A DNA stretch of 43,578 nucleotides. Source: Muribaculaceae bacterium (GTDB lineage Bacteria > Cyanobacteriota > Vampirovibrionia > Gastranaerophilales > Gastranaerophilaceae). The position numbers were made by a program, and so were the translations under genes. Below are positions 1 to 40,832 of this stretch, one piece after another; the first letter of the stretch is position 1, and every line of letters starts with the position of its first letter. A model generated the notes under the pieces. The model did no database searches, was not told the DNA's origin, and worked only from the letters and a program-made list of their open reading frames with translations. Location: positions 1-43,578 of the forward strand of contig JAMPCZ010000001.1 in the NCBI GenBank assembly GCA_023665935.1. Reading direction: 5' to 3'.

Positions 1-21
1 AGCCCGGAATGACAATAAAGA

Positions 22-100
22 GTCATTCTGAGGGCGAAGCCCGAAAGAATCCAGCCGATAGTTTAAAAAGCTGGATTGCTTCACATACGCTCGCAATGAC
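22..100. repeat. Head-to-head pair of dispersed palindromic repeats
   Basis: Bases 22-54 match the GTCATTCTGAG...GAATCCAG repeat and bases 71-100 match the GTCATTGCGAG...GCAATCCAG repeat in inverted orientation. The pair therefore begins and ends with imperfect terminal inverted repeats (GTCATTCTGAG against CTCGCAATGAC). Related copies lie at 11816, 32837, 36795 and 36926. The block runs into the reading frame of the pilin-like gene. Confidence 0.7.
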
Positions 101-124
101 GACTTTGTTGCAAGATTATTTAAT

Positions 125-164
125 CCCCGCCCCTTGCGGGAGGGGAAGTAAAGGGGTGGGGGTC
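125..164. repeat. G/C-rich dispersed palindrome (CCCC...GGGG family)
   Basis: A CCCCGCCCCTTGCGGGAGGGG hairpin core (stem either side of TTG) is followed by a G-rich tail ending in GGGGTGGGGGTC. Similar cores with the same tail occur at 34528, 39588 and 39649, and a bare core at 12230. It lies just before or inside the start of the pilin-like gene and supplies the GTG proposed there as start. Confidence 0.65.
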
Positions 165-923
165 AATTTTGGACACCTAGATAATGTTCCATTCGAAATC
201 CCTCTAGCTAAAGCCGCCTTCACTCTCGCAGAAGTATTAATCACCCTGGGCATAATTGGTATCGTTGCGGCGATGACTATTCCGAGTTTAATGGCTAGTT
301 ATCAAAAAAATCAAACGGTTGTTAGGTTAAAAAAATCTTTCGCAGATTTACAAAATATTGTAAAAATGTCAGAGGCAGAAAATGATGATATGTCAGGTTG
401 GAATTTTCCTTCTGGATATAATAATATTTCTGAGTGTGAAACATTTGTGAAAACTTATTATTTGCCTTATGTGCGTGGTGCAAGATATTTAGATTCAACG
501 CAAAAAGCTATGCGAACCTATGAAATTAAAAACCTTAATGGCAGAATAGTAGGCTATCCTGCTTGTGGTGTTGAATTATCGGATGGTAGATTTTTCTCAT
601 TCTTTTTAAATACAGGTGGCAAATATATATGGCTTTTCATGGATATTAATGGATTTCAAGGTCCAAATCGGGTTGGACGTGATATTTTTATTTTGGAAGC
701 GTATAATTTTCCCGCTCAAAGTGTGTATTCAATAAAGTTTTGGGGGAATTATTCAAATACTATTGAGCATTTACAAAATAGTGGTGCTGAATTGACAGAT
801 AATAATAACGCATCAGGTTATGGCTGCTCAAAAAATAATAAAAACGGACATTACGCAGGATGGTACTGTGGTGAAATTATTAGGCGTAACGGGTGGAAGA
901 TTCCAAAAGATTATCCGTGGTAG
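156..923 (+). CDS. Type IV pilin-like / type II secretion pseudopilin-like protein
   Basis: A class III (prepilin) leader is clear: the mature end would be FTLAEVLITL with the conserved Glu at +5, preceded by Ala-Ala and followed by one hydrophobic helix (GIIGIVAAMTIPSLM). Such proteins are cut by prepilin peptidase at the inner membrane and assemble into pili or pseudopili. The C-terminal part is Cys-, Gly- and Trp-rich and ends in KDYPW, an ending I associate with this family in Gastranaerophilales. The stop is firm and the start is not. The frame is open from 9 (304 residues), but residues before the leader there are translated dispersed repeats (22-100, 125-164). I chose GTG at 156, which follows an AGGGGAAG stretch and gives a leader of about 21 residues. 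ATG at 9 or 96 cannot be excluded. Confidence 0.8.
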   Translation: MGVNFGHLDNVPFEIPLAKAAFTLAEVLITLGIIGIVAAMTIPSLMASYQKNQTVVRLKKSFADLQNIVKMSEAENDDMSGWNFPSGYNNISECETFVKTYYLPYVRGARYLDSTQKAMRTYEIKNLNGRIVGYPACGVELSDGRFFSFFLNTGGKYIWLFMDINGFQGPNRVGRDIFILEAYNFPAQSVYSIKFWGNYSNTIEHLQNSGAELTDNNNASGYGCSKNNKNGHYAGWYCGEIIRRNGWKIPKDYPW

Positions 924-10284: not shown

Positions 10285-10365
10285 GCCTTCAGGCGAGTTT
10301 AGTAGGAACGAGTCCTGAACCGGTTTCAGGACCCTTAAAGAAAAGCAGCATTACCAAAGAGTAAT
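10285..10365 (+). promoter_or_regulatory. String of hairpins in the rpsQ-rplN spacer
   Basis: Three hairpins follow each other: GCCT-TC-AGGC (10285-10294), GTCCTGAA with TTCAGGAC (10312-10332), and ATTAC with GTAAT (10350-10365). The middle one belongs to the TCCTGAA/TTCAGGA dispersed repeat family seen at 39503. No T-runs follow, so a terminator is not indicated. Confidence 0.5.
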
Positions 10366-10405: not shown

Positions 10406-10774
10406 ATGATACAACAAGAAACAAGACTAGAAGTAGCAGATAACACAGGTGCAAAACAATTGTTATGTATCCGTGTTATGGGTAGCTCAAATAAAAAATT
10501 TGCAGCAGTCGGCGATGAAATCGTTGCTTCTGTAAAAGATGCGACTCCAAATATGGCTGTGAAAAAAGGTGAAGTTGTCAGAGCTGTTGTAGTAAGAACT
10601 AAAGCAGATATCAAACGTAATGACGGTTCTGTTATCAGATTTGATGAAAATGCTGCAGTTATTATTAACAAAGACGGCAACCCTAGAGGAACTCGTGTTT
10701 TCGGACCTGTAGCTCGTGAATTGAGAGATAAAGGTTATATGAAAATAGTTTCTCTTGCACCGGAAGTAATCTAA
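10406..10774 (+). CDS. rplN: 50S ribosomal protein L14
   Basis: L14 lies at the intersubunit face and contacts L19 and 16S rRNA helix 14. The 122 residues start [17 protein letters not shown] and contain [38 protein letters not shown] and [20 protein letters not shown], the full-length family pattern. AAAAGGAAAGAAAA precedes the ATG. An open frame on the opposite strand is a shadow. Confidence 0.96.
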
Positions 10775-14074: not shown

Positions 14075-14160
14075 GTATTATGTCTTGAATTTGATTCAAG
14101 ATATAGTATCCAAAATTTTTAAGATTCTGAATCGAGTTCAGAATGACAAAAATTTTGGAT
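14075..14160. repeat. Two stacked hairpins; dispersed core inside perfect inverted arms
   Basis: The first hairpin (14075-14111) centres on TCTTGAAT-TTG-ATTCAAGA with G-U pairs outside. The second has 13-base perfect arms ATCCAAAATTTTT (14108-14120) and AAAAATTTTGGAT (14148-14160) that directly abut a 27-base core (14121-14147). The core is the reverse complement of the one at 22687-22713 with one difference. The arms are unrelated to those at that site. Confidence 0.75.
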
Positions 14161-20623: not shown

Positions 20624-22648
20624 ATGTCAGTAAAACCAATATCAGTTAGAATAGAGTCCAATAACAGTGCGAAAAAGCATAGTTTGAATAATGAAATCAA
20701 AAGAAAAGATGTATCTTTTGGCGGAACTAATTTTATTGTTGATTCTATGGATTTTATTGAAAAAGGCGGTTTTGTTGCGTCTTTCTGTATTCAAGATTTT
20801 ATAGGTTTTATTGCTCCGCGTGTTGGTAAAGGTTTGGTTCGCGGCAGTAAGAAAAAAGATGAAAACGGTAACCCGTTGTTGGACGAAAACGGCAAGCAGG
20901 TTCGCGAGTACAACTGGGCATTGGCACGTAAAGAGCTGCTCCGTGAACTTATTACCGGTCCGAGTGCTTTTGTAATTCCTTGGGCTGCGCTTAAAGGTAT
21001 CAATAAAGTTGCGTCGGGAAATAATGTTAAATTGAATTATATCGACGGTTTCAATGATGCATTTGCGGATTATGCAAAAACCAATATGGCTGCAATAAAA
21101 GCAGGTAACGCTCCGAAGACAGGCTTCTACAAAAATGTTTTAGAAAATGTTATTTCAGAGAGCATCAATGGTGTTTTACCTGCGGCTGAAAGAATGAGCA
21201 AGGAAGAAATTGCGGCTGAGGCTCAAAAATACGCTCAACGTTTGGTTGATGTGGAAAGTATTTCTGCTGATAAATCGTTAACCAAAAAGCAACGCTCAGC
21301 CAAAATTGCCGAACTTGGTGATTCTGTTGAAGACTTGTTCATGAAACTCAAGAAAAGCAAAGTCGGCGGTGCAGTCAATGAGCTTGGTGTTTCGTTCAAA
21401 TCAACAAACGGTAAAATTCAAGGCGGAAGTATCGGAGAACTTATTGGTTCAATGAGTGATTATTTCTCTGATGCCGTACATAGTACAAAGAAAGCTCTTA
21501 CAAACAATGCCGATGCAAATTTGGCAGATATCGTAAAATCCTTTACTCATAGAAGAATGGGTACTAGAGTTTTGACAAATCTTGGGTTGTTTGGTGCTGT
21601 TGCAGCGTTCTATACTCAAATTCCAAAACTTTATAACAAAGGTCTGAAGGAAGATCCGGCATTAAAAGGCACTGTTGTCGATCCATCAATGGTTACAGGT
21701 GAAACAAAAGAAGATAAGCCTGAAAAGAATGCCAAAAAGAGTCTTGCATTTACCGGCTTAGGCAGCGGATTAGAAAAATTAGGTAAAGGTGTATTCAATA
21801 CAAAAGCTCTTAAAGGGGTGTCAGATGTATTTGAACTTAACGGTCCTGTAATTTCCGGCATGGCTATGCCTGTGTTGTTATACGGATTTTGTATTCCGCC
21901 AAGATTAGAGCATGCCCAATCTAAATATGATTATGGCGAAATCATCCTTCGTGATATGACAAGTTTCACTGCTTTATTATTTGGTGCAAAAGCTCTGTCA
22001 AGACTTTTCTCTGACGGTTTGACAAAATCTACAGGTTTGGGTCTTCATAGTAAAAATCTTCAAGGTTTAAATCCGTTCCAAAAAGTTTGGGCATATTTCA
22101 GCCCAAGCGGCAGCCACCACTCTATTCTTTCAAGTAAACAGCTTGATTCAAAATATACAAATCTGCAAGATTACAAAGGCGGCGTAGACGGATTTGTCGA
22201 ATTTATAGAAAAAAGCGGCGGTAATATCAAGAAAGCTCTTTCTCGTGATAGCAAAGTAAGGGAATCTGTTGAAGCAATTTTGAAAGACTTTAACGGCAAA
22301 ACTTATGCACAAGCAACTGTTGATGAAATCAAATCAGCATTGAGTGCGGCTAATAAAGCTGCTGCAGGTACTCATAGAGCTGAGTTGATGGAAAGTTTCT
22401 ATAACATATTCAAAAAACCTACGAAGCTGCTGAAAGTTGCAAAAACATGTAACAGCGGATTCAACTTCCTGTCATCATTTGTACTTGTTCCGGGCTTGAT
22501 TATCTCATTGACAAATGCTTGTGAACGTATGACAGCTAAAAGAACTGCAAAAGATTTTGAAGAAGCAAATGCTAAAAAGAAAATTGTAATGGAAAAATTC
22601 ATTGCATCAAGAACTCCAACTATGGCAGGTTTCTTGGGTAATAAATAA
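20624..22648 (+). CDS. Hypothetical membrane-associated protein with N-terminal Phe-Gly-Gly motif
   Basis: Not recognised. The 674-residue product has a polar, Lys/Asn-rich N-terminus ending in KDVSFGGTNF (about 28-37), followed by several hydrophobic segments: GGFVASFCIQDFIGFIAP (about 48-65), GPSAFVIPWAALKG, VLTNLGLFGAVAAFYTQI, VISGMAMPVLLYGFCIPP, MTSFTALLFGAKAL and SSFVLVPGLIISLTNA near the C-terminus. Membrane association is likely, but there is no classical signal peptide. The ribosome site is weak (AGGGA, 2 bases from ATG). It has its own promoter and is divergent from the giant coiled-coil gene. Function is unknown. Confidence 0.82.
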   Translation: MSVKPISVRIESNNSAKKHSLNNEIKRKDVSFGGTNFIVDSMDFIEKGGFVASFCIQDFIGFIAPRVGKGLVRGSKKKDENGNPLLDENGKQVREYNWALARKELLRELITGPSAFVIPWAALKGINKVASGNNVKLNYIDGFNDAFADYAKTNMAAIKAGNAPKTGFYKNVLENVISESINGVLPAAERMSKEEIAAEAQKYAQRLVDVESISADKSLTKKQRSAKIAELGDSVEDLFMKLKKSKVGGAVNELGVSFKSTNGKIQGGSIGELIGSMSDYFSDAVHSTKKALTNNADANLADIVKSFTHRRMGTRVLTNLGLFGAVAAFYTQIPKLYNKGLKEDPALKGTVVDPSMVTGETKEDKPEKNAKKSLAFTGLGSGLEKLGKGVFNTKALKGVSDVFELNGPVISGMAMPVLLYGFCIPPRLEHAQSKYDYGEIILRDMTSFTALLFGAKALSRLFSDGLTKSTGLGLHSKNLQGLNPFQKVWAYFSPSGSHHSILSSKQLDSKYTNLQDYKGGVDGFVEFIEKSGGNIKKALSRDSKVRESVEAILKDFNGKTYAQATVDEIKSALSAANKAAAGTHRAELMESFYNIFKKPTKLLKVAKTCNSGFNFLSSFVLVPGLIISLTNACERMTAKRTAKDFEEANAKKKIVMEKFIASRTPTMAGFLGNK

Positions 22649-22667: not shown

Positions 22668-22732
22668 AATCGCAAATCGGAATTTCGTCATTCTGAACTT
22701 GATTCAGAATCTTGAAATTCCGATTTGCGATT
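22668..22732. terminator. Long bidirectional hairpin with dispersed repeat at its centre
   Basis: Perfect 19-base arms (22668-22686 and 22714-22732) directly abut the 27-base core GTCATTCTGAAC...AATCTT (22687-22713), itself a hairpin. It lies between two convergent genes, so a bidirectional terminator role is likely. The core matches 14121-14147 (reverse strand) at all but one base; the arms do not. Confidence 0.75.
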
Positions 22733-34527: not shown

Positions 34528-34560
34528 CCCTCTCCGAGGGAGAGGGTTAGGGTGAGGGTT
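34528..34560. repeat. G/C-rich dispersed palindrome with tail
   Basis: CCCTCTCCGAGGGAGAGGG hairpin followed by TTAGGGTGAGGGTT, the most regular copy of the family seen at 125, 39588 and 39649. It lies between lptA and the TPR gene. Confidence 0.75.
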
Positions 34561-39338: not shown

Positions 39339-40832
39339 ATGACTGTAGATAAGATGGAATTGTTGAAGCGCTATAAAGAGTTAAAGGCTCAAGGGGTTAG
39401 CATTACTCTTATGGAGCTTAAAAAACAGATGGAGTCCGAGGGACTATCACAGGCTGTCAATATCTCTGAAACTTCTCAAGTTGCAGTTTCTCCTGGGGTA
39501 AGTTGTCATCCTGAACTTGTTTCAGGATCTGTTAACGCCGGCTCAACTTCTACAACGGCTGGTTTTGGAGGAGTAAATGCTGCTGCTCCCTCCCCCCTTG
39601 TGGAAGAGGACAGGGGTGAGGGGGATGCCCAAAACCAAGTTTCATCATCCCCTCTCCTAGGGAGAGGGCAGGGTGGGGGTTCTGCTATGTATACCTCCGC
39701 TCAAACTGATTCAGCTCCTGCTTTTGTAAGCAGCTTTAATTCTGAATCTCAACCAACGGTGTCAACTTTTTCTCAACCGATTCAACCGCAGGTTGAAACT
39801 ATCGAAAATCATAGCTATCAACAACAGTTTCAGCCGGTTAATCCGGCTTCGGCATTTATGCCGTCTGCGACTGAAAATAACTTTGTTCAAACTCCGCTTC
39901 CCCAGCCGCAAGTTTTGCAGCCGACTTCGGTATCTTTATATAGTGGTAATGTTGCTGAAAACAATGTTCAACCGGTTTCGTCGGATTCCAAAAATAAAAA
40001 GTTTGCGCTAATCGGGTATCCTTTGGGACATTCTTTATCGGCATTTATTCACGATGCCGGGTTTAAGAGTTTGGGTGAAAATTACACCTATGAAATTCTT
40101 GAAACGGCGCCTGAAAGTCTTGTTGATAGAATTAAATATTTAAAATTCAATGGATATTCGGGGTTTAATGTTACTATTCCGCTAAAGCTGCCTGTGACAA
40201 TGTTTTTGGATGAAATTGATGTGTCTGCTGATGTTATTGGGGCCGTTAATACTGTTGTAATAAATCCTGATAAAACGATGAAGGGTTATAATACTGATGT
40301 TATCGGGTTTAGGAAAGCGATACCTGATGATTTTACCTTGCCGGGTAAAGTTGCCGGGGTGCTTGGTACAGGTGGTGCAGCGCGTGCGGCAATTACGGCT
40401 CTTGCGCAAAGTCAGGTTAAAGAGATAAAAATTTACACAAGGAATATTCCTAATTCCTTAGAGCTGCTTAAATTCTTGCGTTCAAAGTTTCCGAATGTTG
40501 AATTTAATGTATATCAAATTGAGCGAATTCGTGACTTATCGGAAGTTCAAATTTTGGTTAACGCAACTCCAATCGGAATGCAAGGCAGGGCGGCTGATTT
40601 GACACCTGTTGAAGAACCGGAATTAAGAACTTTACCGCAAGGGGCGCTTGTCTATGATGTTATTTATAATCCGAAAAAGACTATGCTGTTAAAACTTGCA
40701 CAGAAAAATGGTTATAGAACCATAAACGGTATTGATATGTTTATTTATCAAGCACTTGTTGCCGAGCAAATTTGGACAGGACGCGTACCTGATTTTAAAG
40801 ATATGAAAATTGCCGCATTAGAAAACTTATAA
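39339..40832 (+). CDS. aroE: Shikimate dehydrogenase with long repeat-bearing N-terminal extension
   Basis: Residues 221-497 are a complete AroE, reducing 3-dehydroshikimate with NADPH: ALIGYPLGHSLS, NVTIPLK (catalytic Lys), NTVV, YNTD, GTGGAARA (about 343) and NATPIGM. Ahead of it are about 220 extra residues. The first 40 look helical (VDKMELLKRYKELKAQGVSI), and the rest is low-complexity Ser/Gln/Pro/Val-rich sequence. Three dispersed repeats are read through in frame at 39503-39530, 39588-39625 and 39649-39681. GAGG 6 bases before ATG 39339 supports the long start. Normal AroE has about 280 residues, so the extension is unusual; its role is unknown. Confidence 0.93.
   Translation: MTVDKMELLKRYKELKAQGVSITLMELKKQMESEGLSQAVNISETSQVAVSPGVSCHPELVSGSVNAGSTSTTAGFGGVNAAAPSPLVEEDRGEGDAQNQVSSSPLLGRGQGGGSAMYTSAQTDSAPAFVSSFNSESQPTVSTFSQPIQPQVETIENHSYQQQFQPVNPASAFMPSATENNFVQTPLPQPQVLQPTSVSLYSGNVAENNVQPVSSDSKNKKFALIGYPLGHSLSAFIHDAGFKSLGENYTYEILETAPESLVDRIKYLKFNGYSGFNVTIPLKLPVTMFLDEIDVSADVIGAVNTVVINPDKTMKGYNTDVIGFRKAIPDDFTLPGKVAGVLGTGGAARAAITALAQSQVKEIKIYTRNIPNSLELLKFLRSKFPNVEFNVYQIERIRDLSEVQILVNATPIGMQGRAADLTPVEEPELRTLPQGALVYDVIYNPKKTMLLKLAQKNGYRTINGIDMFIYQALVAEQIWTGRVPDFKDMKIAALENL
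39503..39530. repeat. GTCATCCTGAA dispersed hairpin inside aroE
   Basis: TCCTGAA-CTTG-TTTCAGGA hairpin of the same family as 10312-10332, translated in frame as CHPELVSGS (about residues 55-63). Confidence 0.85.
39588..39625. repeat. G/C-rich dispersed palindrome inside aroE, copy 1
   Basis: CCCTCCCCCCTTGTGGAAGA followed by GGACAGGGGTGAGGGGGA, a degenerate hairpin plus tail, translated as PSPLVEEDRGEGD. Confidence 0.75.
39649..39681. repeat. G/C-rich dispersed palindrome inside aroE, copy 2
   Basis: CCCTCTCCTAGGGAGAGGG hairpin followed by CAGGGTGGGGGTT, close to the intergenic copy at 34528, translated as SPLLGRGQGGGS. Confidence 0.8.

What the first reader, a model, noticed from the sequence alone, without database searches (positions are those of the whole stretch)
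39503..39681. Three dispersed palindromes translated in frame inside the aroE extension
The roughly 220-residue N-terminal extension of AroE contains one GTCATCCTGAA hairpin and two G/C-rich hairpins, members of families found between genes elsewhere (10312, 34528). The frame stays open through all three, giving peptides such as SPLLGRGQGGGS. This parallels Rickettsia palindromic elements inserted in protein genes. The enzyme domain remains intact, so the linker seems to tolerate insertions.
Basis: partly seen in the sequence, partly recalled or inferred. Interest (0 to 1): 0.75.

Follow-up and report, generated by a model that had tools for sequence, protein, structure and literature searches.

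The report
Mobile palindromes translated inside AroE linker
In a gut bacterium related to cyanobacteria, three different short repeated DNA palindromes have landed in frame in the floppy linker of a shikimate-pathway enzyme and appear to be translated; the same families also sit in frame in other essential enzymes of this genus, so DNA repeats thought to belong between genes are adding peptides to proteins here.

Summary
Confirmed. AroE (39339-40832) has a genus-wide N-terminal extension: a conserved two-helix cap (aa 1-35, under purifying selection, so translation starts at 39339) plus a disordered, fast-evolving linker. In this genome the linker holds three dispersed palindromes in frame: A (39504-39530, CHPELVSGS), C (39585-39626) and B (39645-39683). 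The own genome holds about 121 (A), 30 (B) and 35 (C) pattern matches, against 0 for reversed-pattern controls. Of 54 different aroE genes, one sister species has A at this place, a second sister has none, and one distant species has a B-like element.

The same families interrupt leuS, nagA and pgeF in frame. Most congeners are empty there, and other species carry other palindromes at the same loops. The coding copies use stop-free variants: 17 of 17 other C copies would put TAG in AroE's frame.

Best explanation: REP-type selfish palindromes whose intragenic insertions survive only in frame, without stops, in flexible segments. A matches the CGTC-tagged REP definition except for its tail. Intragenic REPs are known from Rickettsia and other bacteria (Di Nocera 2013), so this is a new member of a known kind, in a phylum not listed there for CGTC repeats. 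How they move is unknown.

The parts
39339..40832 (+). aroE, shikimate dehydrogenase, 497 aa with a long N-terminal extension
   Evidence: ORF; Pfam Shikimate_dh_N aa 224-306; TIGR00507 aroE aa 221-496, over cut-off
39339..39443 (+). conserved N-terminal two-helix cap (aa 1-35)
   Evidence: AF2 helices 5-17 and 24-34 in a well-predicted N-terminus; L001 vs L002: 17/20.5 synonymous against 3/81.5 nonsynonymous; motif in most congeners
39444..39998 (+). fast-evolving disordered linker that holds the palindromes
   Evidence: AF2 pLDDT mostly <50 from residue 38 to 215; linker pN/pS 0.17-0.63 against core 0.04-0.07 in close pairs; whole extension 5-279 aa across 54 loci
39504..39530 (+). palindrome A, translated CHPELVSGS: TGTC tag, 8-bp stem ATCCTGAA/TTCAGGAT, 5-nt loop
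   Evidence: 121 copies in genome, control 0; hairpin -8.9 kcal/mol; consensus
39585..39626 (+). palindrome C (CCCTC.CCCCTTGTGG.AGAGG...GGGTGAGGGG family), translated APSPLVEEDRGEGD
   Evidence: 35 pattern matches in genome, control 0; the only one of 18 inspected copies without TAG in this frame
39645..39683 (+). palindrome B (CTCTCC..GGGAGAGGG.AGGGTGRGG), 2-nt CA-linker variant, translated SSPLLGRGQGGGS
   Evidence: 30 copies in genome, control 0; the CA linker keeps this frame open
34530..34557 (+). intergenic copy of palindrome B
22688..22711 (+). intergenic copy of palindrome A at the apex of a long hairpin downstream of the gene 20624-22648
   Evidence: z -8.8
14123..14146 (-). intergenic copy of palindrome A at the apex of a hairpin

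Best explanation
The three segments are copies of REP-type dispersed palindromes that spread through this Gastranaerophilales genome. They inserted in, or were copied into, the intrinsically disordered linker between AroE's N-terminal helical cap and its enzyme domain. Most copies lie between genes. The few that hit genes persist only if the length keeps the frame, the variant has no stop in that frame, and the site is a flexible loop or linker that tolerates the extra residues. Shown: families, frame, stop-free variants, empty sites in relatives, disordered location. Inferred: that copies arise by mobilisation of pre-existing elements, with no specific benefit to AroE. Unknown: the enzyme or repair process that moves them.
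For: Copy numbers against zero-control. Sisters: L002 without inserts, L003 with A only. Same families in frame in leuS (SHPELVSGS), nagA (PLPGRGQGEG) and pgeF (KILNQVQND, PHPNPLPSER), with most relatives empty and others carrying different palindromes at the same sites. On the leuS tree, presence or absence needs at least 4 changes and the own insertion is nested among empties. All 17 other inspected C copies carry TAG in the aroE frame, the aroE copy does not. Both enzyme genes reading B forward in this frame (aroE, nagA) use the CA linker; TTA, GTA and CTA variants would stop that frame. AF2: the insert-encoded residues lie in pLDDT <50 stretches of AroE and NagA. Conserved, selected N-terminus shows that the linker is translated. 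Intragenic REPs that encode peptides in functional proteins are documented (PMC3733652).
Against: No direct proof of translation (no proteomics) and no within-species empty site. The aroE linker is too variable for an exact insertion boundary. At leuS the element partly replaces, rather than simply adds to, the ancestral residues (+9 nt net for a 27-nt element), so simple cut-and-paste insertion is not shown. The genome is a MAG (88.6% complete, 5.3% contamination).
Confidence: 0.86

Rival explanations
1. The palindromes were recruited because they do something in AroE or its mRNA, such as an mRNA hairpin that tunes translation or stability, or a useful linker length.
For: REPs can act as RNA hairpins (PMC3733652). 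All three could fold in the aroE mRNA. The extension with its helix cap is conserved in the genus, so it has some function.
Against: Only 3 of 54 aroE genes carry any such palindrome and the nearest sisters differ. The linker itself is weakly constrained. The same elements occur in unrelated enzymes.
Confidence: 0.1
2. The extension is not translated; the true AroE start is near 39990 and the palindromes are ordinary 5' untranslated or intergenic repeats.
For: Di Nocera et al. warn that many N-terminal intragenic REPs are artefacts of wrong start calls. A few relatives have a short N-terminus (L032, L036).
Against: Aa 2-35 show strong purifying selection (synonymous 17/20.5, nonsynonymous 3/81.5 against L002). 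The motif is conserved across the genus. The ATG at 39339 is preceded by AGAGG. The frame is open through all three elements, which needed stop-free variants.
Confidence: 0.03
3. The segments were not inserted as elements but transferred by recombination or template switching from an existing palindrome copy, replacing linker sequence.
For: At leuS the element replaces ancestral residues with only +9 nt net. In the clade that holds the own genome, the A copies of L001 and L003 differ by a matched stem change (T-A against C-G) at a similar place, as expected of exchange between family variants.
Against: nagA and pgeF show clear net gains (+36 and about +51 nt). No exchange tract was mapped.
Confidence: 0.25

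Closest known systems
CGTC-tagged REPs (Di Nocera, De Gregorio and Rocco 2013, PMC3733652)
   Same: Family A: YGTC tag, 8-bp stem beginning AT, 5-nt loop, dispersed, mostly intergenic, no flanking transposase, some copies in frame in genes including tRNA synthetases
   Different: The 3' tail is CT(T) rather than CCA. The phylum (Cyanobacteriota/Melainabacteria) is not among the five listed for CGTC repeats. Many A copies sit at the apex of longer locus-specific hairpins
Rickettsia palindromic elements (RPE; Ogata and Claverie)
   Same: Dispersed palindromes inserted in frame in functional proteins and translated. RPE-4 and RPE-6 were assigned to CGTC families by Di Nocera et al.
   Different: Units here are short (about 27-40 nt). 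The NCBIfam scan gave no RPE model hit. The host belongs to a different phylum, and several families occur in one gene
GTAG-tagged REPs with RAYT transposase (REPtrons)
   Same: A RAYT-like gene flanked by GTAG-type palindromes exists in this genome (L078)
   Different: Those palindromes are a different family; none of A, B or C flanks the transposase gene

Membership tests
CGTC-tagged REP (family A only) | CGTC tag at one end, commonly TGTC or CCTC | tested here: met
   30 of 31 aligned copies read [T/C]GTC: position -1 G in 30, position -2 T 26 or C 5
CGTC-tagged REP (family A only) | 8-9 bp stem starting with paired AT, 4-5 nt loop | tested here: met
   AT[T/C]CTGAA-CT[T/C]G[A/T]-TTCAG[A/G]AT: 8 bp and 5 nt
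CGTC-tagged REP (family A only) | short unpaired tail, mostly CCA | tested here: not met
   tail is CT(T) in all copies; the paper says most, not all, fit CCA, so filing A under this family is provisional
CGTC-tagged REP (family A only) | many dispersed copies, predominantly intergenic | tested here: met
   121 copies; most sampled copies span no ORF of 100 aa or more
CGTC-tagged REP (family A only) | no dedicated transposase flanked by the repeat | tested here: met
   the only Y1_Tnp gene found is flanked by another palindrome family
Rickettsia palindromic element (RPE) | in-frame presence in conserved protein genes, absent in homologues | tested here: met
   leuS, nagA, pgeF empty sites; aroE sister without inserts
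Rickettsia palindromic element (RPE) | sequence relationship to an RPE family | tested here: inconclusive
   no RPE model hit among NCBIfam matches; no direct alignment with RPE sequences was made, so it is not filed as RPE
GTAG-tagged REP | GTAG tag | tested here: not met
   A carries YGTC; B and C show neither tag as far as inspected

The most novel reading that the evidence does not exclude
In Gastranaerophilales the palindromes are more than tolerated junk. They act as a recurrent source of coding modules, repeatedly supplying linker or loop peptides at the same permissive sites in several enzymes, and serving as exchangeable 5' cassettes that encode the leader peptides of many type IV prepilin-like genes.
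Probability: 0.25. Interest if true: 0.75.

Novelty: new member of a known kind. Interest (0 to 1): 0.52.

Why it matters
It extends protein-coding palindromes to gut Melainabacteria and gives a natural experiment. The same few elements are found filled and empty at defined sites in LeuRS, NagA, PgeF and AroE across about 45 species. That allows tests of how palindromes enter genes, which sites tolerate them, and whether REPs create new protein sequence. It also warns annotators that peptides such as HPELVSGS or PLSEGEGRVR are repeat-derived.

Tried and rejected
Folding energy alone does not distinguish B and C from shuffles. Pfam and NCBIfam show no domain in the extension. The RAYT gene as mover of A, B or C was considered; its flanking palindromes are of another family. 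Literature searches for the peptide motifs and for Gastranaerophilales or Melainabacteria with palindromes or REPs found nothing relevant. Ogata et al. 2002 is not held. An Rfam scan of the window found only a tRNA.

Full report
Setting. The window lies in a 2.03 Mb metagenome-assembled genome (G000, contig 75 of 163; 88.6% complete, 5.3% contamination). Its closest named aroE hits are Gastranaerophilales/Melainabacteria, gut relatives of cyanobacteria. AroE is encoded at 39339-40832, just downstream of a DNA topoisomerase I gene. The enzyme domain starts near residue 221.

Three palindromes are read in frame: A at 39504-39530 (CHPELVSGS, aa 56-64), C at 39585-39626 (APSPLVEEDRGEGD, aa 83-96) and B at 39645-39683 (SSPLLGRGQGGGS, aa 103-115). 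Each belongs to a dispersed family in this genome: 121, about 35 and 30 pattern matches, with zero matches to the reversed control patterns; the B and C lists overlap in part. Among the 89 genomes searched, A occurs in most of the genus and in part of the order, but in none of the 13 genomes from the same class outside the order. The own genome is among the richest.

The extension is real protein. Most genomes of the genus have a long N-terminal extension that begins with a conserved motif (M-x-V-x-K-x-x-L-x-x-R-Y-K-x-L-K-A-x-G). In that segment synonymous change is near saturation while nonsynonymous change is rare (L001 vs L002: 17/20.5 against 3/81.5). The linker behind it evolves with pN/pS 0.17-0.63 and the core with 0.04-0.07 in close pairs. 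AlphaFold2 gives two helices (5-17, 24-34), then a stretch mostly below pLDDT 50 from 38 to 215, then a confident AroE fold. All three palindromes lie in the disordered stretch.

The inserts vary among relatives. Of 54 different aroE genes only three carry such elements: this one (A, C, B), L003 (A variant, CHSELDSES) and L018 (B-like); six further congener loci show none. On the AroE-core tree L001, L002 and L003 form a clade in which L002 has no palindrome. L001 and L003 carry A after similar flanks, so A may predate their split and have been lost with linker sequence in L002; C and B are found only here within that clade.

The same happens in other enzymes of the same genome. The census of sampled A and B copies shows that most span no ORF, but some lie in frame in conserved genes: leucyl-tRNA synthetase (A), N-acetylglucosamine-6-phosphate deacetylase (B; best NCBIfam match nagA, below its cut-off) and PgeF (A and B, both read from the opposite strand). 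Alignments of about 30 congeners each show mostly empty sites. At leuS the usual segment LDYKLNFPLEK is replaced by SHPELVSGSLKEK here and by CHSELGSKT, CDSGLDSES, CHSELDSES or CHSELVSGS elsewhere. In G020 the site holds another palindrome (GTCATTGC...GCAATC, VIANPQGVAI). Three species have DYPEFSVGSLKDK-type segments that may be eroded copies. At nagA another species (G007) has a different palindrome, PRPLWERVPHAAGEG. At pgeF several species have their own palindromes. On a leuS tree built without the site, presence needs at least four changes and the own copy is nested among empties, so insertion recurs at the same permissive sites. In the NagA model the insert lies in the low-confidence stretch 223-233 between strands.

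Selection for readable copies. All 17 other inspected C copies would place TAG in the frame used in aroE; the aroE copy reads AGG there. B copies come mostly with linkers CA, TTA, GTA or CTA. The 2-nt CA linker keeps the aroE/nagA frame open while TTA, GTA and CTA would stop it, and both genes have CA. A is open in three of six frames in either common variant.

What it is. Family A fits the published CGTC-tagged REPs in tag, stem, loop, dispersion and absence of a linked transposase, but not in the CCA tail. Those authors list CGTC repeats in five phyla that do not include Cyanobacteria, and they describe REPs inside genes of several bacteria, tRNA synthetases among them, with one case (recB) of different REPs at about the same site. 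RPE-4 and RPE-6 of Rickettsia conorii were placed in CGTC families there. B and C are related G/C-rich palindromes without either tag. So the phenomenon is known in kind. New here are the lineage, the stacking of three families in one linker, and the well-resolved recurrence at several enzymes.

Mechanism. Most likely these are selfish palindromes. Insertions into genes are filtered so that only in-frame, stop-free copies in flexible segments remain. How they move is open. The single Y1-transposase gene found (L078) is flanked by GTAG-type palindromes (GTAGGTTGGGCATACCTGCCCAAC), not by A, B or C. At leuS the net gain is only 9 nt, so copying or recombination that replaces sequence is a serious alternative to clean insertion. 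A function in AroE is possible but unsupported.

Side observations. Many intergenic A copies of the TTCTGAA type sit exactly at the tip of longer, locus-specific inverted repeats (17 of 31 sampled copies with arms of 8 or more pairs; none of the eight TCCTGAA copies, to which the aroE and leuS copies belong). At one terminator most congeners have a short-loop hairpin, while the own genome and two others have A-like palindromes at the tip. B and C copies are also found in frame directly before the prepilin motif AFTLAEVLITLGIIG in many pilin-like genes (10 of 18 inspected C copies). In some pairs the 120 bases upstream are 83-96% identical although the pilin bodies show only about 55% global identity, which is near background. 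This suggests exchangeable REP-built leader cassettes and may deserve its own study.

Limits. MAG data, no proteomics, no conspecific genomes, a census of sampled rather than all copies, and literature limited to an open-access library.

Noticed in passing
L279, L280, L282, L284, L285, L269, L274, L061, L080, L083 (own genome); window 9-923: Palindromes B and C lie in frame directly upstream of the prepilin motif AFTLAEVLITLGIIG in many pilin-like genes (10 of 18 inspected C copies). In some pairs the upstream 120 bp are 83-96% identical while the pilin bodies are near background identity, as if REP mosaics were exchangeable leader cassettes. The window's first gene has another repeated leader (RGSKGVGVNFGHLDN...).
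   Followed up: partly
window 22670-22730 and 14110-14160; loci L043-L072: A copies of the TTCTGAA type sit at the tip of longer locus-specific inverted repeats (17 of 31 sampled with arms of at least 8 pairs), some at transcription-terminator-like hairpins that have short loops in relatives.
   Followed up: partly
L078 (G000:C72:8291-8662): A RAYT-like Y1 transposase gene flanked by GTAG-type palindromes (GTAGGTTGGGCATACCTGCCCAAC), which looks like a classical REPtron.
   Followed up: no
window 39339-39443: AroE in this genus carries a conserved two-helix N-terminal cap (about 35 aa) tethered by a long disordered linker; its function is unknown and no domain family matched it.
   Followed up: no
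L220 (G022 pgeF): A long insert, different from A, B and C, at the same pgeF site (GNTPSTILPWITGCSTASTQLSPKRVSLCSFLPKSAPHPEKED).
   Followed up: no
window 10295-10335: Palindrome GTCCTGAACCGGTTTCAGGAC upstream of the gene at 10406; it shares only the core of A, and Rfam gave no match.
   Followed up: no
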